Source: a virus. Taken from it: a DNA stretch of 64,000 nt. The notes under the pieces are model-generated. The model saw only the letters and a program-made list of their open reading frames with translations, did no database searches and was not told the DNA's origin. Below are positions 6,079 to 63,630 of the stretch, piece after piece. The DNA is taken from positions 1 to 64,000 of the IMG/VR virus record IMGVR_UViG_3300036795_000039; one strand, given 5' to 3'. The position numbers and the translations under genes are program-made. Every line of letters starts with the position of its first letter. The stretch's first letter is position 1.

Positions 6079-9000
6079 CGCGACCCAGAACCGCCGGGGA
6101 TCTGCTGTCGCAGCGACCACATACCGACCTCGACGGCGACGACGAGAGCGACCAACTCAGCGATCCCGAATACAACGCGGGTCTGTTGCCCGAGCGCGGC
6201 GAGTACGACGAACCAGACGACGAAGGCGACGACGATAACGACGAATTACCCACTCTCGCAGAGATCCCCGATGAGCAGGAGCAGCGGGAGAGGAGCGAAG
6301 CCCCCGAGGAGGTCCGCGAGCAATTCAACGATCTCATGGAAGACGCCGAAGAAGGAGACTTCAAACTAACTGACTACCAACGGTATTGGCGTCGGCTACA
6401 AGGGATCGTCTTACACCACGTCAACAAGGATTGGCGGCTCGCCGGACCAACACGGGACGCGGCAGCCCACGTCGGAACCGTTGTGCAGTCCGGCCAGAAG
6501 GTCGGCAGCCACCTGACACAGCTATATGCACAAAGGCATTTGGGCATTGACTTCACCCCGTTCGATCCCGGCCCCGGCATCATTGAGCGTCCCGGCACCA
6601 ACAAGCTGATGGTGTACTCCCGGCCCATACGGGAGAGAAGCCTTGGCGCGCAACTGAGCAGGCTAGAGACGCTTGCCAATACAGATCTGCAACTCGCCAA
6701 AGTACGGACCCTGTATTCGGCTTTTAACGAAGACCAGACCGTCAACCGCGCGCCGATCAAAACATGGCGGCGCGTCACCACAAGCGAAAACCCCTGCGCC
6801 CTATGTGAAATCGCCGCCGATCAGGTGTACTTCTCCGATGACTTGATGGCCATTCACGACAACTGCATGTGCGACATAGAGCTGGCCGACGAATCCGATC
6901 TTGATGAACACAAGGCCCGCTACCACCACATCGGTTTCGTGCAAACACTTTTGGACATAGGAGAGCAGAAGAAAGACATCCAGACCCTGGCCGACGAGGA
7001 TGCTCCGGCAGAGGATTACCACAACCTCACCAAGATTGAGCAGCACGGAGAACTCGGCCCCGTGATCACCTGGGCTGGGCAGAAATTCACCGGGCCGGGG
7101 GAGTTACCCAACCCAATGCCCGTTCGGCCCACACCGACAGTCTCAGGGCCAGGACGGGGCCATGAGGCGCGGCTGGCAGAGAACCGTGCCAGGGTGGCGC
7201 AGTACCGGGCGCAGCAGTTCGGCCCCGGCGGGCGCGCAGAGCCGCGCTACCATCCAGAGCACGGCAAGGGCAGCAGCTACGTGCCAACGTCCTACGGGTT
7301 GCCACCGATCACGAAAACCGTTGGGCCTAAACCACCTAAGCCCAGGCCGATAGAGATGGGCCACGTTATAGCGACCATCGGCCCCGGCGGGCGTGTCAGT
7401 ATCGAGACAGCAGGCAAGGTAGCCGAGAAGGCTGGAATTGACTGGGGCACAGCATCGTTGGACGACATGCTCGACTACATGGCCCGCAAGCACTCAGGCG
7501 CGGTGCCGCGTGGCTCGTGGCGGCTAAGTCTGTGGACGTCAACGAAATACAACCGTGTTGCCAAGCGGCGCACCTTGCAGGCCATCGATGAGATGCTGAC
7601 TAAATATCCTGACGTGAAGTTCGACGGCGGATTCAAGATCGCCAAACTGGAAAACGGCGTAGTGGCTGAAACATCTTATCGCCCAAGGCTTAACGGCAGG
7701 ACGACGTTCATGACGTTCAACACCGATATCATGGAACGCACACCCGACGAACTGACGCAGGCATTCAGGGCTGCCGAAGACGCGGGTCTGTACTTCTCGG
7801 GCGCATCCGAAGATCCTTACCGCGCAATGGTTTACCACGAGTACGGCCATGTACTGGATGTGCGCGGCACCAACCAGGCACGCGAGCAGGCTTCACGGCT
7901 GATGATCGCTGAGTTTATGAAGTCTGGCCGTCCGATGACCAAGGAGGATCTTAGCGAGTGGATGGCCGAAAAGGACCGGCTCTCAGGCTATTCCATGCAG
8001 GACTTCGTCGTACCCGGCAGGATCTCGCCTCTCACCGGCAAGCCGGGCAGCCTGGCGCTTTCACCGGGCGAGTCCATTGCCCAGGCATTCGATGACGTAG
8101 AGCGCCGTGGCGAGCGAGCGTCCGACGTGTCCAGGGCGCTGCATGCCGAAGTTGTTGAGCGGGCGAAGATCCCATACCCAACAACACCGCTCACCCCCGG
8201 TTATTCGCGTGCCGCGTTGCAGGAAACAGCGGTCGAACGGCTCAAGAAGATGACGCAGCCGAAGATTCCGTGGACCGATGCGGACTTCGCCAAGGAAGAC
8301 AACTTCAACAAACGCAAAGACGAGACGGTTATCCTGAGCGACGAAGACCGTTCCCTCGCAAAGCAATTGGCCACCGATATTTACCGGAAGGCCAAAGGCG
8401 TGGAGGACGCGATCACCGCAGCCGCAGAGTCATCGGTGGGACACAACGGCGGCTACATGTCCGGTTTGGACTTCAGATTGAAGACCGGGCCGTCGCTGTA
8501 TCGCAAAATTCAGGCCGAGGCAATCGAGTATGCGCAAGGAAAGCCGGTCACCGAAAACGATCTGCGCACCGCCGCAGCAGACATCAAGGACGCCGTACGG
8601 TACACAGGCGTCGTGCCCGAGGAAGGCTATTGGGCGAAGGGCGACGACATTCGCAAGTCTTTGGAATCGTTGGGGGCCAAGAACATTAAAGACCCGGTTG
8701 GCATCCCGCTCAACGGTTACCGGGGCCGCAACATGTCATTCGAATACAAGGGTGTGGCTTTCGAGATGCAGGTTCACACTGAGCTGGGCGTGGCAATCAA
8801 AGACGAGGCGCACCACATCTACAACGAGTCAAGGGTTTTGAAGGAGGCCATCAAAAACCGTGGCGAAGACCCAAACAAAGATCCGGCGTACCTCAAGATG
8901 TTCAACGACATGCAGGCCAAGTGGGACACAATGCCCATGCTCAAAGGCACACCCGTCGTGCAGACCGAGAAGGACGCCAAATCCGGCGACCCGAACAAGG

Positions 9001-10571
9001 TGCTGTACATCGCGAAGGACACCAAATACCGGGGGCCGACAGTACCCGGCGGCGAAGCAGAACTGGGCAGCCTCGAAATGCTTGGACGAGAACGTGTTCC
9101 ATCAACACGCTTCGGATTGACCTGGACACCCGATAGCCCAGAAGCCAAGATCGTTGCGCCCGCACGGACTATGGACAAAGACGTGTGGGCCACATTGCCA
9201 GTACAGATGCTGCCGCACGGCACGAAGATCCTCGCCAACGAAGGCACCCTGAAGAAGAAGAGCATCGACAAAGTCGTCGGCGGCACAGAGCCTTTCAGGG
9301 AGGGCTACCACATCGAACTATTCCAAGACAAGAACGGCTTGCATGTCGTGGATGGCCACACCCGTGTGGCCATGTACTACGCACTGAACAAAGACATGCC
9401 GGTGAAGATCCTTACGCAGGATGACATCAACAGGTGGGCCAATGAGCCGGTGCATGAGGCGCTGAAAGCACCGCTTACCGGCTTGAGCGCCGATGACAAG
9501 GGCTGGGGTTCGGTTGCCCGCCGACTACCGGGAGGGGAGACGATCACACCAGTGTTCAAAGAAGGCAAGGGCGGCAAGAAAACACTGGATCTTGAGGGCA
9601 CCTGGGCTACGGTCAGCGACGAGACCCTGAAAGAGAACTGGCGCAAGGCATTACGGGACGCCGCGCCGTGGGCGCAGAAGGCCGGTGTCGACTGGTATCC
9701 CGGTGTCAACCGGCTTGCAAATAAACTGACCGACAAGTACGGCAAGCAGTTCGAGAAGCGTTGGGGCATAAAGCTAACACCGGATCTCACCGCAGCATTC
9801 TTCGCGGCGTACTCGGAGAACAATGGATGGGACGGCAACCTCGTCGGCGTGCGCAGGCTGCTCGACGGCACAGGCAACGAATACCTGGGTGTCCTAAAGG
9901 ATTTCAAGTACAGCGAAGCCAGCAACTACCGGGGTATCAAGGCTGGCAAGTACGGCACCAAGTACGTCATCCCGGCGAGTACGCCCAGCCCTGAGCGAAT
10001 CGCCAAGGCGCGAGCCAAGATTGAAGAGAATTACGCCAAGAAGGGCAAGGTGGCACCCAAGGACGCCACCGGCCTGTCAGAGTTTCAGATACCCGGCGAG
10101 ACCGGCTGGTATCGGCTGTATGACTTCCACGTCAACAAAGCCCTGCGGGCCGCGCAGAACCCGCGAGGCGGCATCGCAGATCTACGCGAAAACGACGCCA
10201 CCGCACCGAAGCCCGCCGACTTTGGGGCTAACATCGCAGGCGATTATGATAAGGCCACAGCCGACCGCTGGGTGGCCCGAATTATCCTGCACAGCGACGA
10301 CGGCGTATTCTCCGAATCCATGCGCGGCTACAGTAAGACCACGGGCGGCGTGCCGGATCGTATCGGGTACAAGCGCATGAGCAAGGCGTTGCAAGATGTG
10401 TCCAAGGAGCCGGAATTCGCGCACCTAAACGCGGCTGCGGTGCAGGCGATCCCATGGGTGCATGTGGTAGGTCCACTAGGGTCAATCGGTGAGATCGATG
10501 ACCTGTCAAGTTATGCTAGCGTTAAGGCTGAAACTTTGCGCAAGGCAGCAGAATTCGGGGATGTGGAGTGA
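6075..10571 (+). CDS. Giant MuF-like head protein with metalloprotease, RelA/SpoT-like and ParB-like modules
   Basis: A 1498-residue protein in the MuF position between portal and scaffold. Residues 10-85 are strongly acidic. About 110-270 is MuF-like, with C241xxC244 and H261..C264xC266. H588-E-x-x-H592, with E666 inside SPGES.AQAF, is a gluzincin metalloprotease signature. About 760-930 matches a (p)ppGpp-synthetase/toxSAS-type core: R801xK803xxxS807xYRK811, D839, GY882R, E897xQxHT902; there is no hydrolase domain. DGHTR at 1093-1097 resembles the ParB/sulfiredoxin fold. About 1150-1498 is unrecognised. MuF proteins are known carriers of toxin domains and some are packaged in heads. Activity in this protein is inferred. 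Confidence 0.85.
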   Translation: MTRPRTAGDLLSQRPHTDLDGDDESDQLSDPEYNAGLLPERGEYDEPDDEGDDDNDELPTLAEIPDEQEQRERSEAPEEVREQFNDLMEDAEEGDFKLTDYQRYWRRLQGIVLHHVNKDWRLAGPTRDAAAHVGTVVQSGQKVGSHLTQLYAQRHLGIDFTPFDPGPGIIERPGTNKLMVYSRPIRERSLGAQLSRLETLANTDLQLAKVRTLYSAFNEDQTVNRAPIKTWRRVTTSENPCALCEIAADQVYFSDDLMAIHDNCMCDIELADESDLDEHKARYHHIGFVQTLLDIGEQKKDIQTLADEDAPAEDYHNLTKIEQHGELGPVITWAGQKFTGPGELPNPMPVRPTPTVSGPGRGHEARLAENRARVAQYRAQQFGPGGRAEPRYHPEHGKGSSYVPTSYGLPPITKTVGPKPPKPRPIEMGHVIATIGPGGRVSIETAGKVAEKAGIDWGTASLDDMLDYMARKHSGAVPRGSWRLSLWTSTKYNRVAKRRTLQAIDEMLTKYPDVKFDGGFKIAKLENGVVAETSYRPRLNGRTTFMTFNTDIMERTPDELTQAFRAAEDAGLYFSGASEDPYRAMVYHEYGHVLDVRGTNQAREQASRLMIAEFMKSGRPMTKEDLSEWMAEKDRLSGYSMQDFVVPGRISPLTGKPGSLALSPGESIAQAFDDVERRGERASDVSRALHAEVVERAKIPYPTTPLTPGYSRAALQETAVERLKKMTQPKIPWTDADFAKEDNFNKRKDETVILSDEDRSLAKQLATDIYRKAKGVEDAITAAAESSVGHNGGYMSGLDFRLKTGPSLYRKIQAEAIEYAQGKPVTENDLRTAAADIKDAVRYTGVVPEEGYWAKGDDIRKSLESLGAKNIKDPVGIPLNGYRGRNMSFEYKGVAFEMQVHTELGVAIKDEAHHIYNESRVLKEAIKNRGEDPNKDPAYLKMFNDMQAKWDTMPMLKGTPVVQTEKDAKSGDPNKVLYIAKDTKYRGPTVPGGEAELGSLEMLGRERVPSTRFGLTWTPDSPEAKIVAPARTMDKDVWATLPVQMLPHGTKILANEGTLKKKSIDKVVGGTEPFREGYHIELFQDKNGLHVVDGHTRVAMYYALNKDMPVKILTQDDINRWANEPVHEALKAPLTGLSADDKGWGSVARRLPGGETITPVFKEGKGGKKTLDLEGTWATVSDETLKENWRKALRDAAPWAQKAGVDWYPGVNRLANKLTDKYGKQFEKRWGIKLTPDLTAAFFAAYSENNGWDGNLVGVRRLLDGTGNEYLGVLKDFKYSEASNYRGIKAGKYGTKYVIPASTPSPERIAKARAKIEENYAKKGKVAPKDATGLSEFQIPGETGWYRLYDFHVNKALRAAQNPRGGIADLRENDATAPKPADFGANIAGDYDKATADRWVARIILHSDDGVFSESMRGYSKTTGGVPDRIGYKRMSKALQDVSKEPEFAHLNAAAVQAIPWVHVVGPLGSIGEIDDLSSYASVKAETLRKAAEFGDVE

Positions 10572-11928: not shown

Positions 11929-12783
11929 ATGGCCATCACCAATTTTATCCCCGAACTTTGGGCGGCAGCGCTGCTCGAAGTCTGGTGGAACGAAACGGTT
12001 TTCGCCGCTCTGGTGAACCGTGAATACGAGGGCATCGCCACTCGTGGCAACACCGTGAACATTACCGGCGTTGTCGTGCCCACCGTCACGGATTACGCTG
12101 CGGCAGGCCGGGTTACGAACGCCGAAGACATCACCGACACCGGAATTCAATTGGTTATTGACCAGGAGAAGTCGACGGACTTCTTCGTTGACGACATCGA
12201 CCGTGCGCAGGCTGCCGGTTCCCTGTCGGCCTACGCGGACGCGGCAGGCGTTGCGCTGGTTGAAGATTCGGACAAGTTCATCGCAGACCTGTTGATTTCC
12301 AACGGAACTCCGCTTGTCCCGACCGGCGTGACCGACACGCCCGGCCCCGGCACTCTGGGCAACCTGACGCCGGATGACGCATTCAACCTTGTGAAGGATG
12401 CGCGCAAGCAGATGAACAAAGCCGCTGTGCCATCAGCGAATCGGGCCTGCGTGATGAACGCGGAATTCGAGGGACTGTTGCTGTCGGCGGCATCCAAGCT
12501 GACAACCTTCTACCAGGTGGACGACACCGAGGGTCTGCGTAACGCGACCGTTGGCCAGCTACTCGGTATGCGAATGGTCACGAGCAACAACCTGCCCGCT
12601 ATCAACTCACCGCAGTTCGTGGCGTTCGCACCGCGCGCCGCCGCGTACGTGTCGCAAATCGATCAGGTCGAAGCGATGCGGGCACAGACCAAGTTCGCCG
12701 ACCGGATCAGGGCACTACATGTCTACGGCGGCAAGGTCGTTCGTCCCGTGGGTGTGGTGGTATATAACGGCGGCGGCAGCTAA
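11929..12783 (+). CDS. Major capsid protein
   Basis: A 284-residue protein with the start MAITNFIPELWAAALLE, typical of actinophage major capsid proteins. It then has the beta-rich, Gly/Thr-rich pattern of an HK97-type shell subunit and a C-terminal segment ending VGVVVYNGGGS. GAAAGGGGTG lies upstream of the ATG. It follows scaffold by 22 bases and precedes the head-tail connector genes. Fold assignment is by family resemblance. Confidence 0.87.
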   Translation: MAITNFIPELWAAALLEVWWNETVFAALVNREYEGIATRGNTVNITGVVVPTVTDYAAAGRVTNAEDITDTGIQLVIDQEKSTDFFVDDIDRAQAAGSLSAYADAAGVALVEDSDKFIADLLISNGTPLVPTGVTDTPGPGTLGNLTPDDAFNLVKDARKQMNKAAVPSANRACVMNAEFEGLLLSAASKLTTFYQVDDTEGLRNATVGQLLGMRMVTSNNLPAINSPQFVAFAPRAAAYVSQIDQVEAMRAQTKFADRIRALHVYGGKVVRPVGVVVYNGGGS

Positions 12784-14623: not shown

Positions 14624-15250
14624 ATGGCTCAAAACAACGCATTGATTTTTTCCGCCGATCCTGTTGTGGGCGGCGGACTTCGGGTCGCTCCTGTTGGGAC
14701 CGACCTGTCTTCGATCTCCGGCTTCAACGCATCCACCGACCTGACCGACTCGTCGTTCGACGTGTGGGTCGACTTGGGCAACATGGGCGATGAGGGGTTC
14801 ATGGAGAAGCTGGCCAAGAAGAACGACAAGAAGCGCAACTTTGGCGGCGATATCGTCAAGATCGTCCAGTCGGAGTTCGATGCCACACTGACTTTTACGT
14901 TCATGGAGTCGGTGAACGGCCTTGTGCTACAAGCGATCTTCGGCGAGGCCAACGTCTTCATCACCCCGGCCACGTCCAGTCACGGTACTCAGGTCATGGT
15001 CAACAAGAACGATTTGCGCGTGCCCGACCAGTCATGGCTGATCGACACCTACGACTCAGAAACGCAAGCGCGCTACCGCAACTGGGTGCCCGATGGCATG
15101 ATCTTCGACATCGGTGACATCAAGGTAGCGACGACCGACATCATCTCCTACAAGGTGACGCTGCAATGCTTCCAGACGGTGCTGGGAGACGGCAGCAAGG
15201 CAGCCATCCGTACCTACACCGACGACGGAATCCTCGTCACCGGAAGCTAA
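14624..15250 (+). CDS. Major tail protein
   Basis: A 208-residue beta-rich tube subunit. AAAGGGAG lies before the ATG. The N-terminal strands followed by the DVWVDLGNMGDEGF segment and a long beta domain fit the tail-tube fold, and it is followed by the frameshifted chaperone pair and the tape measure gene. No C-terminal Ig-like decoration domain is seen. Confidence 0.85.
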   Translation: MAQNNALIFSADPVVGGGLRVAPVGTDLSSISGFNASTDLTDSSFDVWVDLGNMGDEGFMEKLAKKNDKKRNFGGDIVKIVQSEFDATLTFTFMESVNGLVLQAIFGEANVFITPATSSHGTQVMVNKNDLRVPDQSWLIDTYDSETQARYRNWVPDGMIFDIGDIKVATTDIISYKVTLQCFQTVLGDGSKAAIRTYTDDGILVTGS

Positions 15251-15709: not shown

Positions 15710-16158
15710 AGGCCGATCTGCTTGCGGCACCAGGAAACCTACGGTTAAGGAACTGTCCTAGTGAGGATTTCAACTGGCGGGATCTCAAAGTCTTCGTCAA
15801 ATTCGTTGGAGTCCGAAGTCACCTGTACCGCAAGCTGTTTCCCGAATCTGCCGACTGGGATCTGTCAAATCAATTGCTGGCAAGCATCATTGACATCCAG
15901 CGCTGGTTCCAGTGGGTTCGCATGGGTGCCGATGACTCTGGCGTGCCACCGCCCGATCCCATTGAGCGCCCAGGTGTTTCGAAACGTAAGGCCGATCACC
16001 GACGCGGCAACGCTCCGCGCTCCGAGACGAACAGGGTACTCAAGATGCGGCTCACCGACGAAGAAGACCCGAACCGTAAAGCCAAGGTGCGCAAGATGTT
16101 CAGAGGCCCCAACACCGGACCTGTACGTGACATCAGAGGGATGAGCAAAGGGAAATGA
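15353..16158 (+). CDS. Tail assembly chaperone, frameshifted (GT-type) product
   Basis: Predicted -1 frameshift product: it reads the upstream gene to the run of G at 15658-15662, then continues in the frame GGIARLKALAEEHG to 16158, giving about 268 residues. The downstream frame is open from about 15631 and has no convincing start of its own near the overlap. It encodes a helical region, then a basic C-terminus rich in Arg/Lys. The fusion is the standard arrangement in long-tailed phages, but the shift itself is inferred. Confidence 0.72.
15658..15664 (+). promoter_or_regulatory. Candidate -1 ribosomal slip site
   Basis: GGGGGAA read as G GGG GAA in the upstream frame. The P-site GGG can re-pair after a slip of one base back; the A-site GAA would re-pair less well. 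It lies 45 bases before the upstream stop, at a point where both frames are open. Confidence 0.6.
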
Positions 16159-19100
16159 CACAGCCGACCGGAGAACATGCCACAGGCGTCGAACTTGCCG
16201 CTGGCTATGTCAAGGTCGATGTTCAAACCAATGAGGGCATCAAACGGCTCAACACCGAACTGGAAGCCACCGAGGCGCACGCCAAGGTTGTCGGCGAACA
16301 CGCCGGAGCCAACATTGTCACCGGCATCACTGCGGCGGGGGAGCCTGCGGCCAAAGGCTTTACGGACAAGCTACGTCAATTCGCGCAGGGCGGAACGAAG
16401 GATGCCGCCGCCGAGACGGCGTCGACGTTCGGCCAGACCTTCAAGGATGCGCTGCGCAACAGCCGTCTGGTGGAAGATTCGGACTGGCTGTTTAACGGCT
16501 TCAAAGAGAAGTCGGAACTGTATGGGGCAGAAGCCGCCTCGTCATTTCATGGCCGGTTCATTCAGCTACTCGCCGCCAACCGCATCGACGCGGGGCGCGA
16601 GGCCGAGGCCACCGGAGCCGAAGTAGCCGAAGGGCTCAAGAGAGGCACGAGTCGCGCGCTTGAAGCTGGCGGCGAAGGTTTATTCTCCGGCGAGGTATTC
16701 AAGAGAGCGTCCGAGGGCATCCAAGGGTTAGGCCGCAACGCTGGCGAAGCTGGCACAGAGGTAGGCGAAGCCAGCGAGAAACTGGCCGGAATGGGCGGTC
16801 TGCTAGCACCTTTCATGGACCCCGCCGTGATGGGCGCTGCGGCACCGCTGGCGCTGGCCGCTGGCTTCGGCGTGGTCATCGACAAGCTGTATGAGCTGGG
16901 CGAGAAGTGGGAAGAAGTCAACCACTCGCTGCAAATCCAAACGGGCGCAACAGGAGAACAGCTCAAGGGACTTGAGGAAAACGTCAAAGCCGTTGCGGGA
17001 CAAGTACCTTTGTCCATCCAGAAGGTCGGCTCGATAGTCGCAACCGCCAAAACGGCTTTTCAGGATACCGGGGACGGCATCACCCAGATATCCACCGAGA
17101 TCGGCAACCTCCAATCCATGGTCGGCGCAGTGGATCTCACCTCCCTCGGCAGGGGCTTCAGGGCATTCGGGATTGGCGGTGACGCGCAAGCCCAAGTCGA
17201 TGTAGTCAACCAGTTGTTCAAGGCGTATCAGGCAACACAGGTGCCGATCAACACACTGGTCGACGCAATGGCGCGGGCCGCGCCCATAGCCAAACAATTT
17301 CACCTGTCGATCGGTGAAACCGTTGCCGTGATGACCCAGTTCGACCAGGCCGGAATCGACCCCAGCAGAACCATGTTCTCATTGGCCAAGGCGGCACAAG
17401 AAGCCACAAAGGAACACAAGGACTTTTCTACCGTACTAAATGATGAGATCGAGCAGATACGCCACGCCGGTAGCGAGCAGGCCCAATTAGATGTTGCCGG
17501 AAAGTTCTTCGGCAAAACCTCCGGTCGCGGCGGCGCGGCGCCGATCGTGGCGGCGGTCAACGCCGGTCTGACACTAGATCCGGCGCTGCTGGCACAGATA
17601 GAACAAGCCGCCGGGCTGATCGATAAAACACGCCACGACACTGAGTCATGGGCCGACGTATGGACCATAACGAAGAACCGGATATCCGGTGCGCTGCAAC
17701 CGATTTCAGACCAGCTACGCGAGCATGTGCAGGCCGGGTTCGAGCACATCGCCGAATGGCTGGACGCGAACCAGGGCAAGATCGTTACGTTCGCGACCTC
17801 CGTTGTTAACGCTTTCGAGAAGATAGGCGAGGGCATCTCGGTCGCGTTCAACAAAGCGGTGCCCGTCGTCAAATCCATTATTGAGTATCTGCGACCAGGT
17901 ATCGATAACCTGATGCCGCATATCGAGAAGCTGGGCCAGGCGTTCGTGCCGCTGATCAAAGCGCTAGGCACCGACTTGCTGCCGATATTGAAAGTCGTTG
18001 GGGAGGCATTGGTTTGGGCGCTTGGGGAGGCTATCAAGTATGCGCCGCCCGTGGTCGATGCCCTGACGCACATCGTCAATGCTTTGACCGACACGTTCCA
18101 TTGGCTGCACGACAACCTGGGGCCGATATGGAACGAGGTCTTCGGCGATGCTAAGGCTATCATCGATCCGGTTGTCGGTGCGGTAGAAGCCGTTTGGCAT
18201 GCAGGCGAGAAGGTGGTCGACTACTTCGACGCCCACATTCTGCCGATCATCAAGAACGTCTTCGGTATCTGGCTCGACCTGATGAAACCCATCATCGCCA
18301 TCATCGGCGAAACAGTAAAGGCCGTAACAGGTTTGGGCGAATACATCGGGGACCACCTGGGGCCGATATTCAAGATTGCCGGTGGAATCATCCACGACAC
18401 CTTCGGGCCGCTGCTGGACGTCTTCAAGCAGATATGGGACGTTCTCAAGAAGATCGGCGAATACGTCGGCCACGATCTCACCAAAGCGTTCGATGACGTA
18501 GGCAAGGCTACCGCCAGTATCAAGAGTCTGATCGATATGGTTCCCGGCCTTGGGCATTCAGGCGGGGGACCGCCAGCGACGACGCACGGGCAGACCGGAC
18601 TGGCGCTTGGTGGCTACGGCGGCGGCGATATCGTCCCGGCGATGTTGGAGCCCGGCGAGCATGTGTGGACGAAGGAAGAAGTCGCGGCCTTGGGTGGTCA
18701 TGCAAACATGTATCGGCTGCGTGCCAAGATCCGTTTCGCCGGACTCCACGATCCTATGCCGATGATTCCCGGCTCCGGCAGTGACCCTGACATCACGAGT
18801 GGCGGTCCTATCGTTCGCGGACCTGGCGGCACATACCACCATGAGCACGGTGACATCATCGGAACACCTTGGGGTGTACCGATGTACGCGCAGGGCGGCG
18901 GCATGATTCACCCGGCTGGTCAAGAGCACCGCGAAAAGTCTTGGGTGATAGACAGATACAAGTTGAGTGAACCCGGCAAGACACATTTCCAGGGCGGCGG
19001 CGACGTAGGCCAATCATGGTGGAGCGCAATCAAATCCACGTTCGATCCCAACCCGATGAACTGGTTCAAAGACGACCCCGACAAAGAGCTACCGGGCGAC

Positions 19101-20942
19101 GATGCCAGTAGCGGCTCCGGTGGCTTCTGGGCCGACATACTGCGATCATTCGTAGGAAGCAAACAGATAGCGCCGGGCGCGGGCTTTGGCCATCCCTTAC
19201 GGATGCAGGGCGGCGGCGATGTGCATGACAACCTTGTAGTACCGTCGCTGAAAACCGCTAATCGTCCAGTGGCACCCCATTATGGTGCCGGTAATCGTGA
19301 CCCCCACGACCCTGTCGGCGCATTCTGGGACTGGTTGGCAAAGCATCCACCAGACTGGGGAGCACTCAACCCAGAGAGATGGCATTTCCAAGGCGGCGGC
19401 GAGGTCGGAGATCCTGGGCTGGCATCGGTGATAGCTCTACTGTCAGCCGAAAGTGGGCGCACCCCATACGCTTTCGGCGGCTACTCGCCGAGGGGCATCG
19501 ACTGCTCAGGGCTTGTCGCTGAAGCGGTGCAGGTCTATCTAGGTGAACAAGTCAACGTAGGTGCGCACCCGATGTCCACCGGCAACGAGGCGAGTTGGCT
19601 TGCCGCACACGGCTTTAAGCAGGGCATCGGGCCGGAGGGCAGTTTCCGTGTCGGCTTCTACAACGGCGGTCCCGGCGGTGGCCACACCGCGCTGACGCTG
19701 CCGGACGGCACGAACGCGGAGGCCGGGGGATCGGGCGGCGGTGTGCGCTTGGGCGGTGGCGCTGCCGGTGCTGGTAGCGCAGAGTTCTCCGACCATTGGT
19801 ATCTGCCGCCTAGGAGCGTTGTAGAGCCAGGAGGGTACGGGGGGACCGGGCCGGGCAGTTCGGGAGCCTACGGTGGCGCTGGGGGGGCAGAAGGGGCATC
19901 CTACGGCGGTGCCGGGGGCGGTGGTGGTACTGGGCCGACACCAGAGCAGGTCGCCGGAGTGGATAGCCGCGTATCCAACGCCAACGACAAACTCAACGTG
20001 CTCAACCAGAAGATCACCGAGGCACAACAGCACCTACAGGAGGTCGAAGCTAAGGCACCGAAGACAGCGAAAGGCGAACCGGGACATGAACGTGCCGTCG
20101 CCGCCGCGCAGGAACACCTGAAAGACCTTGAGGCACAACGGGATCAGGCGCAAGGAGACCTCGACTCAGTGACACAGGAGCGCGCCAGCCTAACCGGAGA
20201 CAACGATCCGAAAGCCCTTGTGTCAGCAAAGGACCGGATCACTGACGCCAACATTCGGCTCAATGATGCGCAGGCCAAACTCGACCGCGACCGCGCCGAT
20301 CCGAAGAAGAAGCCCTCCGAGATTATGCAGGATGAGAACAACGTAGCTAGAGCCAAAGAGCGAGTTGCCAAGGCAGAGCAGCACTTACAGGAGCTAGAGT
20401 CTAAGCCAGCCAAGCGGGGCAAAGGCGAGGGCGGCGGCAAGGATGCCGATTTTGTCTCGGCTATCGGGGATGCCGCAGGTAAGGGGCTGCTAGAGAACCT
20501 GCCGCAAGGATTCTCCGACCCAACCTCATGGGGCGGTGTGAAAAGTGCTGCGGCACTGATGAAATTCCTTGCCACCGCAGGCGGGCAACCTGGCAGTCCA
20601 CTGGGAATGCTTGCGGCGGCTCGGGGCACTCAGGGCGCAGCCGGACTCAGCCTGTTCGGCGACATACTCGGCGGCAAAGGCGGCGACGCAGGCAAAGACA
20701 TTGCTAGCCTTATCAATCCACAGGCGTACACGGCCAGCGGCGGTGGGCTTACTGCGTCGAATCCCACACTGCCGCCGGACATGAAGACAGCGGGCGGCGG
20801 CAATACGGCCAACGTCAACAACACGCAGAACATCACCAACAATGGTGTCGATCCAGCGAAAGCGACCGTGGAGCAGACTGCGGCTCTGCATCGCGGGATA
20901 CGTTCTGATGTAGGGCTAGCAAGATATGCGACGACACCATGA
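16155..20942 (+). CDS. Tape measure protein with C-terminal NlpC/P60-like peptidase
   Basis: A 1595-residue tail-length ruler. Residues 1-200 are helical; about 195-250 is a hydrophobic Ala/Gly-rich segment (membrane-like); about 540-790 is a repetitive helical region rich in LGPI/IKYAPPV motifs. Four GGG[DE]V-type segments fall between about 945 and 1090. DC1117SGLVAEAV with H1177 matches an NlpC/P60-type cysteine peptidase, useful for local peptidoglycan opening. A Gly-rich linker and a coiled coil (about 1280-1425) follow. By the usual ~0.15 nm per residue the tail would be near 200-240 nm. Confidence 0.9.
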   Translation: MTQPTGEHATGVELAAGYVKVDVQTNEGIKRLNTELEATEAHAKVVGEHAGANIVTGITAAGEPAAKGFTDKLRQFAQGGTKDAAAETASTFGQTFKDALRNSRLVEDSDWLFNGFKEKSELYGAEAASSFHGRFIQLLAANRIDAGREAEATGAEVAEGLKRGTSRALEAGGEGLFSGEVFKRASEGIQGLGRNAGEAGTEVGEASEKLAGMGGLLAPFMDPAVMGAAAPLALAAGFGVVIDKLYELGEKWEEVNHSLQIQTGATGEQLKGLEENVKAVAGQVPLSIQKVGSIVATAKTAFQDTGDGITQISTEIGNLQSMVGAVDLTSLGRGFRAFGIGGDAQAQVDVVNQLFKAYQATQVPINTLVDAMARAAPIAKQFHLSIGETVAVMTQFDQAGIDPSRTMFSLAKAAQEATKEHKDFSTVLNDEIEQIRHAGSEQAQLDVAGKFFGKTSGRGGAAPIVAAVNAGLTLDPALLAQIEQAAGLIDKTRHDTESWADVWTITKNRISGALQPISDQLREHVQAGFEHIAEWLDANQGKIVTFATSVVNAFEKIGEGISVAFNKAVPVVKSIIEYLRPGIDNLMPHIEKLGQAFVPLIKALGTDLLPILKVVGEALVWALGEAIKYAPPVVDALTHIVNALTDTFHWLHDNLGPIWNEVFGDAKAIIDPVVGAVEAVWHAGEKVVDYFDAHILPIIKNVFGIWLDLMKPIIAIIGETVKAVTGLGEYIGDHLGPIFKIAGGIIHDTFGPLLDVFKQIWDVLKKIGEYVGHDLTKAFDDVGKATASIKSLIDMVPGLGHSGGGPPATTHGQTGLALGGYGGGDIVPAMLEPGEHVWTKEEVAALGGHANMYRLRAKIRFAGLHDPMPMIPGSGSDPDITSGGPIVRGPGGTYHHEHGDIIGTPWGVPMYAQGGGMIHPAGQEHREKSWVIDRYKLSEPGKTHFQGGGDVGQSWWSAIKSTFDPNPMNWFKDDPDKELPGDDASSGSGGFWADILRSFVGSKQIAPGAGFGHPLRMQGGGDVHDNLVVPSLKTANRPVAPHYGAGNRDPHDPVGAFWDWLAKHPPDWGALNPERWHFQGGGEVGDPGLASVIALLSAESGRTPYAFGGYSPRGIDCSGLVAEAVQVYLGEQVNVGAHPMSTGNEASWLAAHGFKQGIGPEGSFRVGFYNGGPGGGHTALTLPDGTNAEAGGSGGGVRLGGGAAGAGSAEFSDHWYLPPRSVVEPGGYGGTGPGSSGAYGGAGGAEGASYGGAGGGGGTGPTPEQVAGVDSRVSNANDKLNVLNQKITEAQQHLQEVEAKAPKTAKGEPGHERAVAAAQEHLKDLEAQRDQAQGDLDSVTQERASLTGDNDPKALVSAKDRITDANIRLNDAQAKLDRDRADPKKKPSEIMQDENNVARAKERVAKAEQHLQELESKPAKRGKGEGGGKDADFVSAIGDAAGKGLLENLPQGFSDPTSWGGVKSAAALMKFLATAGGQPGSPLGMLAAARGTQGAAGLSLFGDILGGKGGDAGKDIASLINPQAYTASGGGLTASNPTLPPDMKTAGGGNTANVNNTQNITNNGVDPAKATVEQTAALHRGIRSDVGLARYATTP

Positions 20943-53562: not shown

Positions 53563-54047
53563 TCTCTTCCCAGTTACCCGGCGGTGGATCGGCGGCTGGC
53601 AGAGTAGGCCCGAAGCATCAGACCAAACTCGCGCTACCCGTATGGTTTTCACGGGGAGGCGTCGTCGGCGTGCTTTCGCACCAGGGCGGGGAACTCGTGC
53701 AGGCACCGTCTAGCTGGTGCCCAGGTCTGCCTTTACCACCGGCCTGCACGATCTGGGATCGACTTGACACACACCATCTAAAGGCTGTTGCTCACGCTTG
53801 CGAGGCGCGGACTGGATTTGATAGGCTGTCCAGTAACAGCTTTGGCCTGGGGTGGTTAAGTTGTTACGGACGGTCTTCTTCGGGGGGCCGTCCGTTTTTT
53901 GTTGGAAGTTACCACCGTAGCACACACGAAAACGGCTGTGCAACAATGGGTTTGCATAGGGTGAAAAGTAGGTGTACTTTGGACGTTGTCAATTGCGCTG
54001 GTAGAGAGGACCATTCAGTTGAAGTGCTTAACCATTACGGTCGATGA
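53559..54047 (+). CDS. Uncertain open frame running through a terminator
   Basis: An open frame of 162 codons whose GTG overlaps the previous stop (GTGA), a normal start arrangement here. However, it reads through the strong terminator at 53866 and over the start region of the next gene, and its composition is weakly coding (Ser/Gly/Pro-rich). Either the true gene ends before 53860 by some error, or this is a non-coding trailer. The stretch otherwise holds nothing I recognise. Confidence 0.3.
   Translation: MISSQLPGGGSAAGRVGPKHQTKLALPVWFSRGGVVGVLSHQGGELVQAPSSWCPGLPLPPACTIWDRLDTHHLKAVAHACEARTGFDRLSSNSFGLGWLSCYGRSSSGGRPFFVGSYHRSTHENGCATMGLHRVKSRCTLDVVNCAGREDHSVEVLNHYGR
53866..53901 (+). terminator. 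Rho-independent terminator
   Basis: ACGGACGG (53866-53873) pairs exactly with CCGTCCGT (53888-53895), around a loop with TTCTTCGGGGGG, and is followed by six T. It ends the rightward recombination/HNH operon and separates it from the small-gene group starting at 54.0 kb. Confidence 0.9.
53952..53980 (+). promoter_or_regulatory. Weak candidate promoter
   Basis: TTGCAT (53952-53957), 17 bases, TACTTT (53975-53980), after the terminator and 39 bases before the TTG start at 54019. Only half of each box matches consensus; context rather than sequence supports it. Confidence 0.35.
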
Positions 54048-54576: not shown

Positions 54577-54992
54577 ACATCGCAACCAACATCAAGGTCG
54601 GCGAGTATGAGATGAACACGCCGGGGCTCATAGCGTGCGACCACTGTGGGATAGTCGCTGTGGACACACCGGCTTTCGGCTGGAAGCGGTGGCAGGAGAA
54701 CGGCGAGCTACTGCACCACTGCCCGGCGGCGGTGCAGTACAACGAATGGGTGGCGGGCGGTCTGGTTCACATGAAGGCACCGGACGAGGCTGTGCAGTAC
54801 CAGTATTGGCCGTTGCCAAATGTGTTCTACCTGGTGAACGCTGAAATGGGCTTCGAGGCAGGGCCTTTCGTCGGCCACGGTGAGGCCATGAATGCGTTGG
54901 ATCTGATTAACGGCGATCTCCGTTCCGGCACAGCGGTATTGAGTGACGGCGAATATCACGCAAGCAAGATATGGCACGTCAATGGTCGCTAA
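54573..54992 (+). CDS. Hypothetical protein with Cys/His motif
   Basis: A 139-residue protein from a GTGA overlap. CDHCG at about residues 18-22 and HHC near 49-51 could share one zinc. The remainder is alpha/beta with many aromatics (YQYWPLPNVFYLVNAEMGFE). No family identified. Confidence 0.65.
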   Translation: MNIATNIKVGEYEMNTPGLIACDHCGIVAVDTPAFGWKRWQENGELLHHCPAAVQYNEWVAGGLVHMKAPDEAVQYQYWPLPNVFYLVNAEMGFEAGPFVGHGEAMNALDLINGDLRSGTAVLSDGEYHASKIWHVNGR

Positions 54993-55071
54993 CGTACTGA
55001 TCTGTCTTGGCGTCATCGCGGGATTGAAGATCGCGAAATACGTGTGGTCAATCATCTGGGAATGGGCATGA
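54982..55071 (+). CDS. 29-residue membrane peptide
   Basis: Residues 2-23 are a hydrophobic helix (VANVLICLGVIAGLKIAKYV). Its start lies inside the previous gene and its stop overlaps the next start (ATGA), so it fits the operon's coupling rule. Role unknown; a membrane-targeted toxin-like or accessory peptide is possible. Confidence 0.6.
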   Translation: MVANVLICLGVIAGLKIAKYVWSIIWEWA

Positions 55072-56193: not shown

Positions 56194-56409
56194 ATGTCAA
56201 ATCCGACACCGGATATGCGCTCGATTGACCAGAACGACATCAACGCGTGGGCGGAGAATGTGAACGCCGCCGTCACCGCGTTGCAGACCATTATTGCCAA
56301 CGGCAATCTCACAGCAGCCGACGAGTCGCTGATGAACACCGCTATTGGCACTCTCGACGGGGTGGCCGGTACCGTGACGCCGCCTGTTACGCCGCCTGCC
56401 GGTCAGTAA
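56194..56409 (+). CDS. Small protein before the SGNH virion protein
   Basis: A 71-residue protein with CGAAAGG ahead of the ATG. Helical residues about 15-50 (NAWAENVNAAVTALQTIIANG), then a TPPVTPP tail. The next gene starts three bases after its stop. Possibly a small virion component. Confidence 0.65.
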   Translation: MSNPTPDMRSIDQNDINAWAENVNAAVTALQTIIANGNLTAADESLMNTAIGTLDGVAGTVTPPVTPPAGQ

Positions 56410-56412
56410 TCA

Positions 56413-58554
56413 GTGAGCACGCCAATTGGGCTGCCGCAGTTCACTGTCCAGCAGTACATGGAAGAAGGCCAGACACCGGGCAGTAATGTGTCCGGTGATC
56501 CGGTCACTGTCGCGCCGCTGAATATCTTGGTGACGTTCACACCAAGCCAGGCCGAGATCCAGGTTACTGAGGCCACACCCATTCCGTTCACGGTGTACCT
56601 CGATCCCGTTGTGGCGCGGGTGGATACGGACGGCTACCTCAAGGGGATCAACAGCGAGCCCGTGTATTACGACGACGCTGGCACGATTTATCAAGTGCCA
56701 CAACTGAGTTCAGCGGGCCTGCCGGTCACTCCGGTGTACGCCGGGGCCGACACGCCAGCGTACTGGATTGACGCCGACGGCAACGAGGTTCCCAACCCGC
56801 CAGGTCTCGCGGTGTGGGGTGTGCGGCTGGTGTCGAACAGTTCCCTTCTCGCACTTGCCAATCCGCTCATGTACCGGGTGAACTACTCGCGCGGCGATGT
56901 GGTGATACACAGCTTCACGTTCGCCGCACCATCGACAGATGTCACCGTCGACCTCAGCACCGTCGAACGGCTAGGACCAGCCCCGGCATCGGTCACGTCG
57001 ATAGCCGACATCACACCACTTGGCATCGAGATTGTTACCGCACCCGACGTGGAGTCTGTCGCCAACCTGCTGGGCTACAACCCACCCAAGCAAGTATCAA
57101 TCGGTGACCAGGGACATGGAATAGCAGCGCAGGGCAACGCCACCTCAACCGTGGGTACGGGCGAAATGATGTTCGTGGTGGGTCCGAAATCCTCTGGCAT
57201 CTCCGCGTTGTTCGAACACTGGTACACCGACGCCGGATCAGGGGCCGACACCGACCCGGCTGGGCCAATCAGCTTCAATGCGTCTGTGCGGGTTGTCAGT
57301 TCGAGCAACCCAGGCACCCTGATAAACACGATTCACCGGATAACGTTCAACGGGCGCACCACCGCGACACTGGACCCCGGCGGCAAGGTTATCTCCGATC
57401 CGTTGGGTATCACTGTCGCTCAAGGCGATGAGGTCGCCGTCCGTACGTTCTTGGCGTCGGGCACCGCGTACGCGCCTAGGGAGACATGGGGAACCAGCGG
57501 CGGGCCTGGCGGGTTCACTGCCACAACGGATTTGACGGCACCGGGCAGCGCCGCTATCCCGGTATCCGGTGGGATCTATTACGGGCCAGCCGCATTAATG
57601 GGATTCCCCGAAGGTGCAGCAGATGCCTTGTCCTGCTTAATTATTGGCGACTCGATATCGTCCAGCGGTGCCGACACAGCCGTCTTCACGATTCCCCACC
57701 TTGGGGAAGGCGGGTTCGGGATACGGGCACTCACCGGCCAGGGCGGGCTTCTCAACGTGGCGGTGCCCGGTGATTCCGCGACCGGCTTCCAGAGCAGCGA
57801 CTTTGACTTCCACCGGCTAGCCAACGCCGCGTACTGCAATGTCGCGCTAATCGGCTACGGCTCAAACGATTTCATTGAAGGCACCACCGCAGCCCAGCTT
57901 GAGGCCATCCACCTGAATGAGGCAAACGAGTTGCGGCGGCTGGGCATTCGTAGAGTTTTCATCCTCACCGTCTGTCCTCGCGTGACTACCACAGATGGCT
58001 GTGGAACCCTAACAGGTCAAACACCCATGTCAGGCGAAGCGCAACGCGTGCTATACAACACCTGGGCCAGGGGCCGGTGCCCCATTGACCCAAGCACCAA
58101 AGCGCCTGTGGCAGTTGGCACTTCGGGCGCACTGTTGGCGGGCGACTTCGGGCATCCCCTCACCGGGTTCTTCGACGTGGCATCCAAAGTCGAGTCGGGC
58201 CTGAATTCCGGTAAATGGTTACCAGCCCTGCGAACCGCGCATGGCTCAATCACTTCCGGCGACAATGCCGTCACGTCCTCAGACGCCAACTTTTCTGGGG
58301 CTATTCAAGAGAATGGCGGCGACCTTGGGTCTGGCATGGTACTCATGGGCGGTGGGGCGAGCGGAGCGCCACTGTCGGGGCCAGCGGTGCTTGTCACACC
58401 ACCCACGACGGCGTACCTACTTCTGTTGGCCAGCACCACAGTAACCAACGCGACCCTTTACATTGGCACAGTGACAGCGGAGGGCGTCCACCCGAACGGC
58501 AGGGGCGTTGTCCTGATGGCTTCGGCAATCGACCTGGCCAAATTGGCAGGCTAG
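56413..58554 (+). CDS. Virion-type protein with SGNH/GDSL hydrolase domain
   Basis: A 713-residue protein. Residues 1-190 resemble minor tail modules (DGYLKGINSEPVYYDDAG), and about 230-400 is a beta-rich domain. The esterase domain begins IIGD413S414ISSSG (block I), has IGYGSN485D486 (block III) and ends VTAEGVH693PNGRG (block V, with Glu instead of the usual Asp three residues before His). About 200 residues lie between blocks III and V, longer than usual. It would remove ester groups from envelope glycans or lipids. The GTG start lies four bases after the preceding gene. Confidence 0.78.
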   Translation: MSTPIGLPQFTVQQYMEEGQTPGSNVSGDPVTVAPLNILVTFTPSQAEIQVTEATPIPFTVYLDPVVARVDTDGYLKGINSEPVYYDDAGTIYQVPQLSSAGLPVTPVYAGADTPAYWIDADGNEVPNPPGLAVWGVRLVSNSSLLALANPLMYRVNYSRGDVVIHSFTFAAPSTDVTVDLSTVERLGPAPASVTSIADITPLGIEIVTAPDVESVANLLGYNPPKQVSIGDQGHGIAAQGNATSTVGTGEMMFVVGPKSSGISALFEHWYTDAGSGADTDPAGPISFNASVRVVSSSNPGTLINTIHRITFNGRTTATLDPGGKVISDPLGITVAQGDEVAVRTFLASGTAYAPRETWGTSGGPGGFTATTDLTAPGSAAIPVSGGIYYGPAALMGFPEGAADALSCLIIGDSISSSGADTAVFTIPHLGEGGFGIRALTGQGGLLNVAVPGDSATGFQSSDFDFHRLANAAYCNVALIGYGSNDFIEGTTAAQLEAIHLNEANELRRLGIRRVFILTVCPRVTTTDGCGTLTGQTPMSGEAQRVLYNTWARGRCPIDPSTKAPVAVGTSGALLAGDFGHPLTGFFDVASKVESGLNSGKWLPALRTAHGSITSGDNAVTSSDANFSGAIQENGGDLGSGMVLMGGGASGAPLSGPAVLVTPPTTAYLLLLASTTVTNATLYIGTVTAEGVHPNGRGVVLMASAIDLAKLAG

Positions 58555-58559
58555 ACAAC

Positions 58560-59141
58560 ATGATTGACTTGACTGTTGCCATGTGTAGCATCGACACACG
58601 CTACCGTACGTTCGCGCTGCGAATGCAGGACATGCTGTGGGGCCAGCACCAACGCCTGCCGCTGGCCGACCGCCAGCGGGTAGAGATCCTGATCCTGTCC
58701 GACAACAAGGTGATGACCATTGGGACCAAACGTAATTGGCTGGTGCAGATGGCGCAGGGCCGCTACGTGCAGTTCGTAGACGACGACGACAGACTGGCCG
58801 ACGACGCATTAAAACGGGTGCTGGCCTGCACCGCATACGACTGTGACGTGATTTGCTTCCCGGCCATGGTGTCACTAGGCGGCGGGCCTGCGCGAATATG
58901 CCATTACAGCAAGAACTTTGGACACGACCACAACACGGCGACCTGCTATCAACGGCTGCCCAACCATATCTGCGCCACCAAGCGCGAGATCATGCTTGAC
59001 ACCCCGTTCCTGAATATCTGTATGGGAGAAGATGCCGACTATGCGCGGCGGCTAGCACCCAAACTGAAGACCGAATGCACGCTCGAAAAGCCTTTGTACT
59101 TCTACGATTACGATCCGAGGACCAGTGAATGTAGACGTTGA
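58560..59141 (+). CDS. Glycosyltransferase 1 (GT-A type)
   Basis: A 193-residue enzyme. A nucleotide-sugar-binding start (IDLTVAMCSIDTRYRTF) is followed by TKRNWLVQMAQGRYVQFVDDDDRLADDAL (about 52-80), whose DDDD supplies the DxD metal site of GT2-type transferases. GEDADYARRL matches the ED motif region later. Short for the family. Five bases after the SGNH gene; overlaps the next gene by 17 bases. Confidence 0.8.
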   Translation: MIDLTVAMCSIDTRYRTFALRMQDMLWGQHQRLPLADRQRVEILILSDNKVMTIGTKRNWLVQMAQGRYVQFVDDDDRLADDALKRVLACTAYDCDVICFPAMVSLGGGPARICHYSKNFGHDHNTATCYQRLPNHICATKREIMLDTPFLNICMGEDADYARRLAPKLKTECTLEKPLYFYDYDPRTSECRR

Positions 59142-59835
59142 CTTGGTGATAATGTCCAAGGCCACCAATAACTCGCTGGCGACCATGACGCAGCGCGCCG
59201 TCAACACCGCCAAGTATGCAGCGCTACCCCGTGTCGTCAATGTGATTGTGATGGAACAGGCCAACGCCGAATACAGCAATGCCACAACGGTTTTGAGCCC
59301 AGGCGTATTCAACTACAATGCGTTCGCCAACCATGGCGCGAAACTTGGGCAGGCACCGTACATCGTTATCGCTAATAACGATCTGGAGTTTCGCGACGGC
59401 TGGCTGGACCGGATGCTCGCGGCGAACTGGCCAGTGACGTCGCCGGTAAGCCCCGGCTATCACCGGCACCACAACGTGATGGGCAACGAGATCGGCCAAC
59501 AGGTAGGAAGGCACTTGGCCGGTTGGTGTTACATGCTCACCCGTGAGCTGTGGTCTGAGCTGGGCGGGCTCGATGATACATATCCGTTTTGGTGTGCCGA
59601 TAACGCCGTGATGAAACAGTTGCAGGACAAGGGGATTCACCCAATGCTGGTGGCGGGCGCGACGGTGCATCACAAGGTGTCGGCCACGCTGATGCGCGAA
59701 TCCCGTGACGTACAGGACGAATTGACGTGGGGGCTGGTGCATCAATACAACCTCGACACCAATGCCAACATCTTCGCCAGAGACTATCGTTATGATGCGT
59801 GGAAGCGCCGCAACAGAATTCAGGAAACACCATGA
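59125..59835 (+). CDS. Glycosyltransferase 2 (GT2-like)
   Basis: A 236-residue enzyme from a GTG at 59125. PYIVIANNDLEFRDGWLDRML (about 72-92) is the NND/DxD-type strand, and LAGWCYMLTRELWSELGGLDDTYPFWCADN (about 132-160) is the acceptor-side GT2 block. Coupled to both neighbours; acts on an unknown phage or host glycan. Confidence 0.8.
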   Translation: MNVDVDLVIMSKATNNSLATMTQRAVNTAKYAALPRVVNVIVMEQANAEYSNATTVLSPGVFNYNAFANHGAKLGQAPYIVIANNDLEFRDGWLDRMLAANWPVTSPVSPGYHRHHNVMGNEIGQQVGRHLAGWCYMLTRELWSELGGLDDTYPFWCADNAVMKQLQDKGIHPMLVAGATVHHKVSATLMRESRDVQDELTWGLVHQYNLDTNANIFARDYRYDAWKRRNRIQETP

Positions 59836-60476
59836 GCGACATAGTGATTGGGGTGGTAGCCGACACGCGCCGTGATCAGCAGGCGTGGGCGCTGTATGAC
59901 ACGGTCGACGCCAAGGTGATTAGCTTCGACTCCGGCACCATAGGCGCAACCAAGAACCACATCAGGGTATGGACGAAACTTCTTCAGCACGGCGGCAATT
60001 GGGCTGTGGTACTTGAGGATGACGCGGTGCCGGTGGACGGGTTCACCGATCAGTTAGTCGGCGCGCTCGCTGACCCACCAGCCAACATTGTCGGCCTGTA
60101 TCTGGGCAAGGGCTATCCGAAAGCGTGGCAGCGTTTCGTCAAGAAGGCCACTTCAAGTGAGACGGCGAATTATGTTATGTCGAGCCATCTTCTGCACGGC
60201 GTGGGAACGGCGATCCGCATGCACCTTGTCGAGGACATGCTGCGCTGCATCAAGCGCATCACGCCAGTCGATTGGCCGATGGATGAGCAGATCACACGGT
60301 GGGCGCGGCTACGTGGCGAACGGGTGTGCTACACGCTGCCGAGCCTTGTCGATCATGCTGATGGCCCAACGCTTTTGGTTCATCCCGACAGTGAGGGTCG
60401 CGCCGCTCCGCGCGTGGCCTACCGCACCGGCAGGCGTCCCGTGTGGGATAAGACGAAAGTTGTTGGTATGCCATGA
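59832..60476 (+). CDS. Glycosyltransferase 3 (GT25-like)
   Basis: A 214-residue enzyme. IGATKNHIRVWTKLL and WAVVLEDDAVPVDGF (about 58-72, with the EDD metal site) match the GT25 style of transferase. HGVGTAIRMHLVEDML and WPMDEQIT follow at the positions of the acceptor loop. Starts by ATGA overlap and ends by ATGA overlap with a membrane peptide. Confidence 0.78.
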   Translation: MSDIVIGVVADTRRDQQAWALYDTVDAKVISFDSGTIGATKNHIRVWTKLLQHGGNWAVVLEDDAVPVDGFTDQLVGALADPPANIVGLYLGKGYPKAWQRFVKKATSSETANYVMSSHLLHGVGTAIRMHLVEDMLRCIKRITPVDWPMDEQITRWARLRGERVCYTLPSLVDHADGPTLLVHPDSEGRAAPRVAYRTGRRPVWDKTKVVGMP

Positions 60477-60559
60477 CACCCGCACAGATCGCACTCATCG
60501 TATTCATTAGCCTCGTACTGGTTGGTTTTACGCGACACGGCTGGTTGACAGGGCTCTAA
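60473..60559 (+). CDS. 28-residue membrane peptide after the glycosyltransferases
   Basis: Residues 3-20 are hydrophobic (PAQIALIVFISLVLVGF), followed by a short basic tail. ATGA overlap with glycosyltransferase 3 indicates coupled translation. It might anchor the enzymes to the membrane, which is inferred only from linkage. Confidence 0.62.
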   Translation: MTPAQIALIVFISLVLVGFTRHGWLTGL

Positions 60560-63441: not shown

Positions 63442-63630
63442 ATGATTGTCATTGGAATCATTCTGCTGTTGCTCGCGTATCTGCTACCCGATGTGGTGGC
63501 TGTACCGCCGGGCATCGAGCACGTCCTGTCGGTGTTGGGTTGGGTCGCTATCGTGGTCGGCCTGATCTTGCTGGTGTTCGGTCATCTTCGCGGTGGACCC
63601 GTGGTCGGCACTCGTCGCTACTGGTGGTAA
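63442..63630 (+). CDS. Small two-span membrane protein, DUF6131-like
   Basis: A 62-residue protein beginning MIVIGIILLLLAYLLPD, then a second hydrophobic segment and a basic end GTRRYWW. This is the layout of DUF6131, a family of small mycobacterial membrane proteins. GAAAGG precedes the ATG. Confidence 0.72.
   Translation: MIVIGIILLLLAYLLPDVVAVPPGIEHVLSVLGWVAIVVGLILLVFGHLRGGPVVGTRRYWW

What the first reader, a model, noticed from the sequence alone, without database searches (positions are those of the whole stretch)
56413..60559. SGNH-esterase virion protein linked to three glycosyltransferases and a membrane peptide
An SGNH hydrolase in a fibre-like protein is followed, with overlapping starts, by three different GT-A enzymes and a 28-residue membrane peptide. 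The group could trim host envelope esters and glycosylate virion proteins (which can hide phages from antibodies or tune binding) or alter host glycans to block superinfection. It sits at 56-60 kb, far from the structural genes.
Basis: partly seen in the sequence, partly recalled or inferred. Interest (0 to 1): 0.72.

Follow-up and report, generated by a model that had tools for sequence, protein, structure and literature searches.

The report
Capsid-sugar genes beside tail esterase
This uncultured phage, a distant relative of phages that infect mycobacteria and Gordonia, carries a known three-enzyme set that most likely attaches sugars to its own capsid and tail-tube proteins, and next to it the gene of a sugar-trimming tail fibre that is probably an accidental neighbour.

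Summary
In detail: 56413-60559 encodes an SGNH esterase with a tail-fibre-type N-terminus, three glycosyltransferases (GT1-GT3) and a 28-aa hydrophobic ORF, tightly packed (5-nt gap, then 17-, 4- and 4-nt overlaps). The GT trio resembles the three-GT operon of mycobacteriophage Che8 (gp108-110; GT1 40%, GT3 44% identical; no Che8 match for GT2). Che8 gp110 and its cluster-O counterpart Corndog gp38 are reported as essential for capsid glycosylation (PMC12363180). The window's capsid protein is 58% identical to Che8's. No GT has a membrane segment, no flippase or DNA-hypermodification gene was found, and GT2 models as a GT-A enzyme. Virion O-glycosylation is the best reading.

New support: glycans are reported at the C-termini of capsid and tail tube, and these are the only 2 of 82 called window proteins ending in Gly/Ala-Ser. 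A C-terminal Ser on these two proteins tracks GT presence across sampled phages (capsid 11/13 vs 0/10; tail tube 13/14 vs 0/9), with exceptions.

The esterase-GT linkage is not conserved: no relative has them side by side, and esterase relatives mostly sit among structural genes. GT1/GT2 splitting is already described in cluster J. Overall: a new member of a known kind.

The parts
56194..56409 (+). 71-aa ORF (ends ..TPPVTPPAGQ), first gene of the tight cluster; contains a 'QNDINAWAENVNAAV' stretch resembling the N-termini of phage tail-fibre proteins
   Evidence: Gene call; 3 nt from the esterase start; no significant PHROG or Pfam match to the longer ORF. The tail-fibre resemblance is by eye, inference only.
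56413..58554 (+). SGNH/GDSL esterase with a tail-fibre-type N-terminal region (713 aa). Motifs GDS414, GSND (N485), H693; the usual catalytic Asp of DxxH is Glu690 here
   Evidence: PHROG esterase and tail-protein matches; alignments of relatives; solved SGNH hydrolase 9kr0; relatives annotated as minor tail protein or esterase. AlphaFold model failed (pLDDT 30).
58560..59141 (+). GT1, GT2-superfamily glycosyltransferase (193 aa); invariant DDDD and ED motifs
   Evidence: Pfam Glycos_transf_2 24.7 bits, over cut-off; phrog_8858; 13-sequence alignment; 40% identical to Che8 gp108 N-terminal part.
59125..59835 (+). GT2, GT-A glycosyltransferase (236 aa); NND and GG(L/F)D motifs; fused to GT1 in most relatives, separate here
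   Evidence: phrog_22332; alignment; fusion status; AlphaFold pLDDT 92, Foldseek top hits ppGalNAc-transferases and RmlT.
59832..60476 (+). GT3, phrog_854 glucosyltransferase family (214 aa), invariant DDA motif; counterpart of Che8 gp110
   Evidence: Pfam Glyco_tranf_2_3 27.7 bits, over cut-off; phrog_854; 704 phage records hold a relative; alignment.
60473..60559 (+). 28-aa hydrophobic ORF overlapping GT3 by ATGA; possible membrane peptide
   Evidence: Sequence; hydropathy 2.87 over 15 residues; no convincing family match. Coding status unproven.
11929..12783 (+). Major capsid protein (284 aa, ends ..VVVYNGGGS): predicted acceptor of the glycan
   Evidence: phrog_267; 58% identical to Che8-type capsid over residues 1-264; C-terminus.
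14624..15250 (+). Major tail (tube) protein (208 aa, ends ..GILVTGS): predicted acceptor of the glycan
   Evidence: phrog_117; C-terminus and alignment.

Best explanation
GT1-GT2-GT3 is a virion protein O-glycosylation cassette of the Che8 type. The enzymes act in the cytoplasm on newly made capsid and tail-tube subunits. Probably one of them attaches the first sugar to the exposed C-terminal Ser (..Gly-Ser-COOH) and the others extend the glycan; which enzyme does which step is not known. The result is a sugar-coated head and tail. The upstream SGNH protein is a tail fibre or receptor-binding enzyme that likely removes acyl groups from a surface glycan during adsorption. It shares the transcription unit but not the pathway. 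Shown here: gene content, homology, motifs, the GT2 fold model and the C-termini. Inferred: activity, sugar, acceptor residue, order of steps and function of the esterase.
For: Che8 carries three consecutive GT genes, gp108-110, near its right end; GT1 matches the gp108 N-terminal part and GT3 matches gp110. PMC12363180 reports Che8 gp110 and Corndog gp38 as the essential GTs for capsid glycosylation; cluster-O phage Dylan has an O-methyltransferase plus three GTs, the last of them a GT3 relative, between portal and protease. The window's capsid protein is 58% identical to the Che8-type capsid. Glycans are reported at the C-termini of capsid and tail tube (PMC12619734). Only capsid and tail-tube proteins of 82 called window proteins end in [GA]S (1 in 3321 by chance). 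A C-terminal Ser on these proteins tracks GTs: capsid 11/13 with GT vs 0/10 without; tail tube 13/14 vs 0/9. Catalytic motifs are conserved. GT2 resembles polypeptide GalNAc-transferases in fold. GT1-3 have no TM segment.
Against: GT2 had no tblastn match in the Che8 stretch that holds gp108-110, so the match to Che8 is two genes plus order. The C-terminal-Ser association is on phages picked by hand, with shared ancestry among some. Failures: LittleE capsid and the cluster-C1 myovirus Sauce (its tube assignment is a guess). HK97's capsid ends SSGS, with no described glycan to my knowledge. Gaia has the tags but no GT2-family enzyme, only a below-cut-off Stealth-like ORF. Window conclusions are from an uncultured record.
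Confidence: 0.77

Rival explanations
1. The GTs modify host surface glycans during infection or lysogeny (seroconversion-like, superinfection exclusion).
For: The GT3 family also occurs in Escherichia, Klebsiella and Serratia phage records, where host-glycan targets are possible; GT3 has a weak GT25/LPS-type Pfam match; phage GTs that change serotype are known.
Against: No TM segment in GT1-3, no flippase or polyprenol-GT partner found in the annotated genes; the nearest well-studied relatives modify virion proteins.
Confidence: 0.1
2. Esterase and GTs form one pathway: the SGNH domain edits (deacylates) the virion glycan, or the GTs glycosylate the fibre itself.
For: Packed genes in one apparent transcription unit; SGNH domains act on acylated sugars in other systems.
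Against: None of 10 GT-bearing IMG/VR records has an esterase relative and none of 3 esterase-bearing ones has GT1 or GT3 (records may be partial). In Rabbitrun both occur but about 55 kb apart. Esterase relatives lie next to major tail, minor tail or terminase genes. The fibre ends ..KLAG, not Ser.
Confidence: 0.12
3. The GTs decorate modified bases of phage DNA.
For: One PHROG side hit of GT1 is a beta-glucosyl-HMC glucosyltransferase, E 0.06.
Against: No base-hypermodification enzyme among the annotated genes, only a DNA methyltransferase-like ORF; the strong matches are to other GT families.
Confidence: 0.02

Closest known systems
Mycobacteriophage Che8 gp108-gp109-gp110 virion glycosylation genes (cluster F; Freeman et al. 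2023 as cited in PMC12363180 and PMC12619734)
   Same: Three consecutive GT genes; GT1 40% identical to gp108 N-terminal part, GT3 44% to gp110; capsid protein 58% identical; capsid and tail tube both end in -GS
   Different: gp108 is longer and gp109 is not a recognisable GT2 relative; no esterase adjacent in Che8; glycan not shown for the window phage
Omega gp16 / LittleE gp15 and gp17 (cluster J, PMC3706429)
   Same: GT1 and GT2 correspond to the two catalytic domains of one protein, fused in Omega and split in LittleE, compared there with E. coli chondroitin synthase
   Different: In LittleE a kinase gene lies between the halves; in the window the halves overlap by 17 nt
Gordonia phages Sixama gp91-92 and GodonK gp81-82
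   Same: GT1-GT2 followed directly by GT3; capsid and tail tube end in -GS
   Different: GT1-GT2 fused; cassette sits among the structural genes, with no esterase beside it
SGNH-domain tail fibres and receptor-binding proteins (Klebsiella prophages, PMC13123978; E. coli phage G7C gp63.1 as cited there)
   Same: SGNH hydrolase domain in a phage fibre protein, shown to be an active esterase in those cases
   Different: Different phage group and substrate; here Glu replaces the catalytic Asp and activity is untested

Membership tests
Che8-type virion glycosylation cassette | Homologue of Che8 gp110 / Corndog gp38 GT (phrog_854) with intact DD motif | tested here: met
   phrog_854 E 1e-65; 44% identity to gp110; invariant DDA
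Che8-type virion glycosylation cassette | Accompanying GT genes in an operon | tested here: met
   GT1 and GT2 directly upstream with 17- and 4-nt overlaps
Che8-type virion glycosylation cassette | All three GTs orthologous to Che8 gp108, gp109, gp110 (not required in Corndog-type relatives, so not taken as defining for the kind) | tested here: not met
   GT1 and GT3 matched; no tblastn match of GT2 in the Che8 stretch with gp108-110. GT2's relatives are in Gordonia and cluster J phages
Che8-type virion glycosylation cassette | C-terminal glycan acceptor on capsid and tail tube | tested here: inconclusive
   Ser C-termini present on both; modification itself not testable in silico
Che8-type virion glycosylation cassette | Glycan on virions, lost in GT mutants | not testable with these tools
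   Needs mass spectrometry
SGNH/GDSL hydrolase | Block I GDS nucleophile, block III GxND, block V DxxH | tested here: met
   GDS414, GSND and H693 present; D of DxxH is E690, a conservative change
Phage tail fibre / receptor-binding protein | Tail-type N-terminus and relatives inside tail modules | tested here: met
   phrog_11690 tail protein; relatives annotated minor tail protein or lying by major or minor tail genes
Gtr-type host serotype-conversion cassette | Membrane GT with flippase (GtrA) and polyprenol-GT (GtrB) | tested here: not met
   No TM in GT1-3; no flippase found

The most novel reading that the evidence does not exclude
A C-terminal Ser, usually Gly-Ser, is a portable acceptor tag: actinobacteriophages with unrelated capsid folds and different GT sets (possibly also Stealth-like transferases, as in Gaia) have independently placed it on exactly the capsid and tail-tube proteins, so a phage's glycosylation state could be predicted from the last residues of these two proteins.
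Probability: 0.45. Interest if true: 0.6.

Novelty: new member of a known kind. Interest (0 to 1): 0.42.

Why it matters
Phage virion glycosylation has been shown in only a few phages and affects how antibodies see them. The window extends it to an uncultured phage and suggests a simple sequence rule (a C-terminal Ser on capsid and tail tube) that makes the set of glycosylated phages predictable and testable. Freeman et al. 2023 could not be read here, so whether they already state that rule is unknown.

Tried and rejected
AlphaFold of the 713-aa esterase failed with a 4-sequence alignment (pLDDT 30) and was not used. GT3 as a single sequence found no relatives in IMG/VR. MCP family phrog_283 found nothing in the IMG/VR GT records. 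Host-glycan modification and DNA glucosylation were considered and rejected (see rivals). A programmed frameshift joining GT1 and GT2 was considered: the frames differ, but a GTG start with 17-nt overlap explains it, separate genes also occur in L014 and LittleE, and the linker found in fused relatives is missing. A sequencing error is unlikely for the same reason. mEp390 (E. coli, GT3 relative, capsid and tail ending SGS) was not counted as support because HK97's capsid also ends SSGS. Corndog and BPs could not be fetched by accession, and Myrna was not obtained (range over the limit). Freeman et al. 2023 is not held; statements about it come from papers that cite it.

Full report
What is there. 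The window is part of a 67,416-base IMG/VR virus record, about 59% GC, no tRNA. Gene calls and PHROG searches show a siphovirus-type genome: terL 2190-3851, portal 4123-5883, a 1498-aa head protease/morphogenesis protein, scaffold, major capsid protein 11929-12783, major tail protein 14624-15250, tape measure 16155-20942, minor tail genes to about 33 kb, lysin genes, then small and DNA-metabolism genes. Six ORFs follow each other with spacings of 3, 5, -17, -4 and -4 nt: a 71-aa ORF, the esterase, GT1, GT2, GT3 and a 28-aa hydrophobic ORF. A terminator-like site lies upstream at 53866-53895, though such sites are no more frequent here than in shuffles.

The esterase. PHROG gives a tail-protein match in the N-terminal part and an L1-like esterase match in the rest. 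Pfam alone is weak for the window protein (E 0.05), but three of four family members match GDSL models, best E about 1e-6, and a family profile matches solved SGNH hydrolase 9kr0 at E 1.5e-13. GDS414, N485 and H693 are invariant among relatives; the Asp of DxxH is Glu in the window. Relatives lie beside the major tail gene (Bibwit, Rabbitrun), in the tail module before the lysins (L023), among tail/head-connector genes (L024) or upstream of terminase after fibre-like genes (L008). It is therefore most likely a virion fibre enzyme. SGNH fibres are active esterases in other phages (PMC13123978). No relative was found next to these GTs: three esterase records lack GT1 and GT3, and ten GT records lack the esterase; Rabbitrun has both, far apart.

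The glycosyltransferases. GT1, GT2 and GT3 have strong PHROG matches, conserved catalytic motifs and no TM segment. In Gordonia phages and most IMG/VR relatives GT1 and GT2 are one protein; they are separate in the window, in L014 and in LittleE. [quoted passage not shown] GT2 was modelled with pLDDT 92, and its best structural matches are polypeptide GalNAc-transferases and RmlT, at only 11-15% identity, which supports the GT-A fold but not a sugar or an acceptor. GT3 has relatives in 704 phage records, mostly mycobacteriophages, among them Che8 gp110, reported with Corndog gp38 as essential for capsid glycosylation (PMC12363180). Che8 has three GT genes in a row.

The likely substrate. The window's capsid protein is 58% identical to the Che8-type capsid. 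Glycans are reported at the C-termini of capsid and tail tube (PMC12619734). In the window the capsid ends NGGGS and the tail tube VTGS; no other of 82 called proteins ends in Gly-Ser or Ala-Ser. I compared other phages, with GT presence tested by the GT3 alignment and Pfam PF00535. With GT: window, Che8, phiGD23-1, Fryberger, Sixama, GodonK, Yvonnetastic, prophiGD91-2, Rabbitrun, Dylan and Poise all have a capsid ending in Ser, while LittleE and Sauce do not. For the tail tube, 13 of 14 end in Ser (including IMG/VR records G005 and G007; the exception is Sauce, whose tube is a guess). Without GT: LilSpotty, Bibwit, Dubu, AGM4, Yakult, Tolls, TM4, D29, Giles and Bxb1 have none (capsid 0/10); tail tube 0/9, including G002. 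Fisher p is 7e-5 and 1e-5, but the phages are a hand-picked and partly related sample, so these values are only indicative. Dubu and AGM4 are informative because they have the same capsid family without GT and without Ser. Gaia has both tags but no GT2-family enzyme; it has a Stealth_CR2-like ORF below the curated cut-off. It is left out of the counts above; counted as GT-negative it raises p to 6e-4 and 7e-5. HK97's capsid ends SSGS, so the ending alone does not prove glycosylation.

Conclusion. The best reading is a Che8-type virion glycosylation cassette with capsid and tail tube as acceptors, next to an unrelated tail-fibre esterase gene. The kind is known; the member, its split GT1-GT2 and its esterase neighbour are new in detail. 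The C-terminal-Ser rule is the most useful product. It is a correlation, and may already be known from Freeman et al. 2023, which could not be read here.

Noticed in passing
window 11929-12783 and 14624-15250: Capsid and tail-tube proteins are the only called proteins ending in [GA]S; the feature tracks GT presence across phages.
   Followed up: yes
L050:43767-44540 (Gaia 84236-85009): Stealth_CR2-like ORF beside a methyltransferase gene in a phage with Gly-Ser capsid and tail tube but no GT2-family enzyme; Yvonnetastic also has such a match (W18:76626-76862).
   Followed up: partly
window 56413-58554, residue 690: The catalytic Asp of the SGNH DxxH motif is Glu in the window, Asp in relatives.
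   Followed up: partly
window 6075-10571: A single 1498-aa protein combines matches to head maturation protease, head morphogenesis and other families.
   Followed up: no
window 37929-41107, minus strand: Minus-strand block within a mostly plus-strand genome, with a 384-aa HNH endonuclease-family protein and a 347-aa ATPase.
   Followed up: no
L053 (E. coli phage mEp390) 3979-5136 and 6680-7150: A lambdoid phage with an HK97-like capsid carries a GT3 relative (38.7-39.3 kb), and its capsid and tail protein both end in SGS; HK97's capsid ends the same way.
   Followed up: partly
window 54982-55071 and 63442-63630: Other short hydrophobic ORFs (29 and 62 aa) like the 28-aa one after GT3.
   Followed up: no
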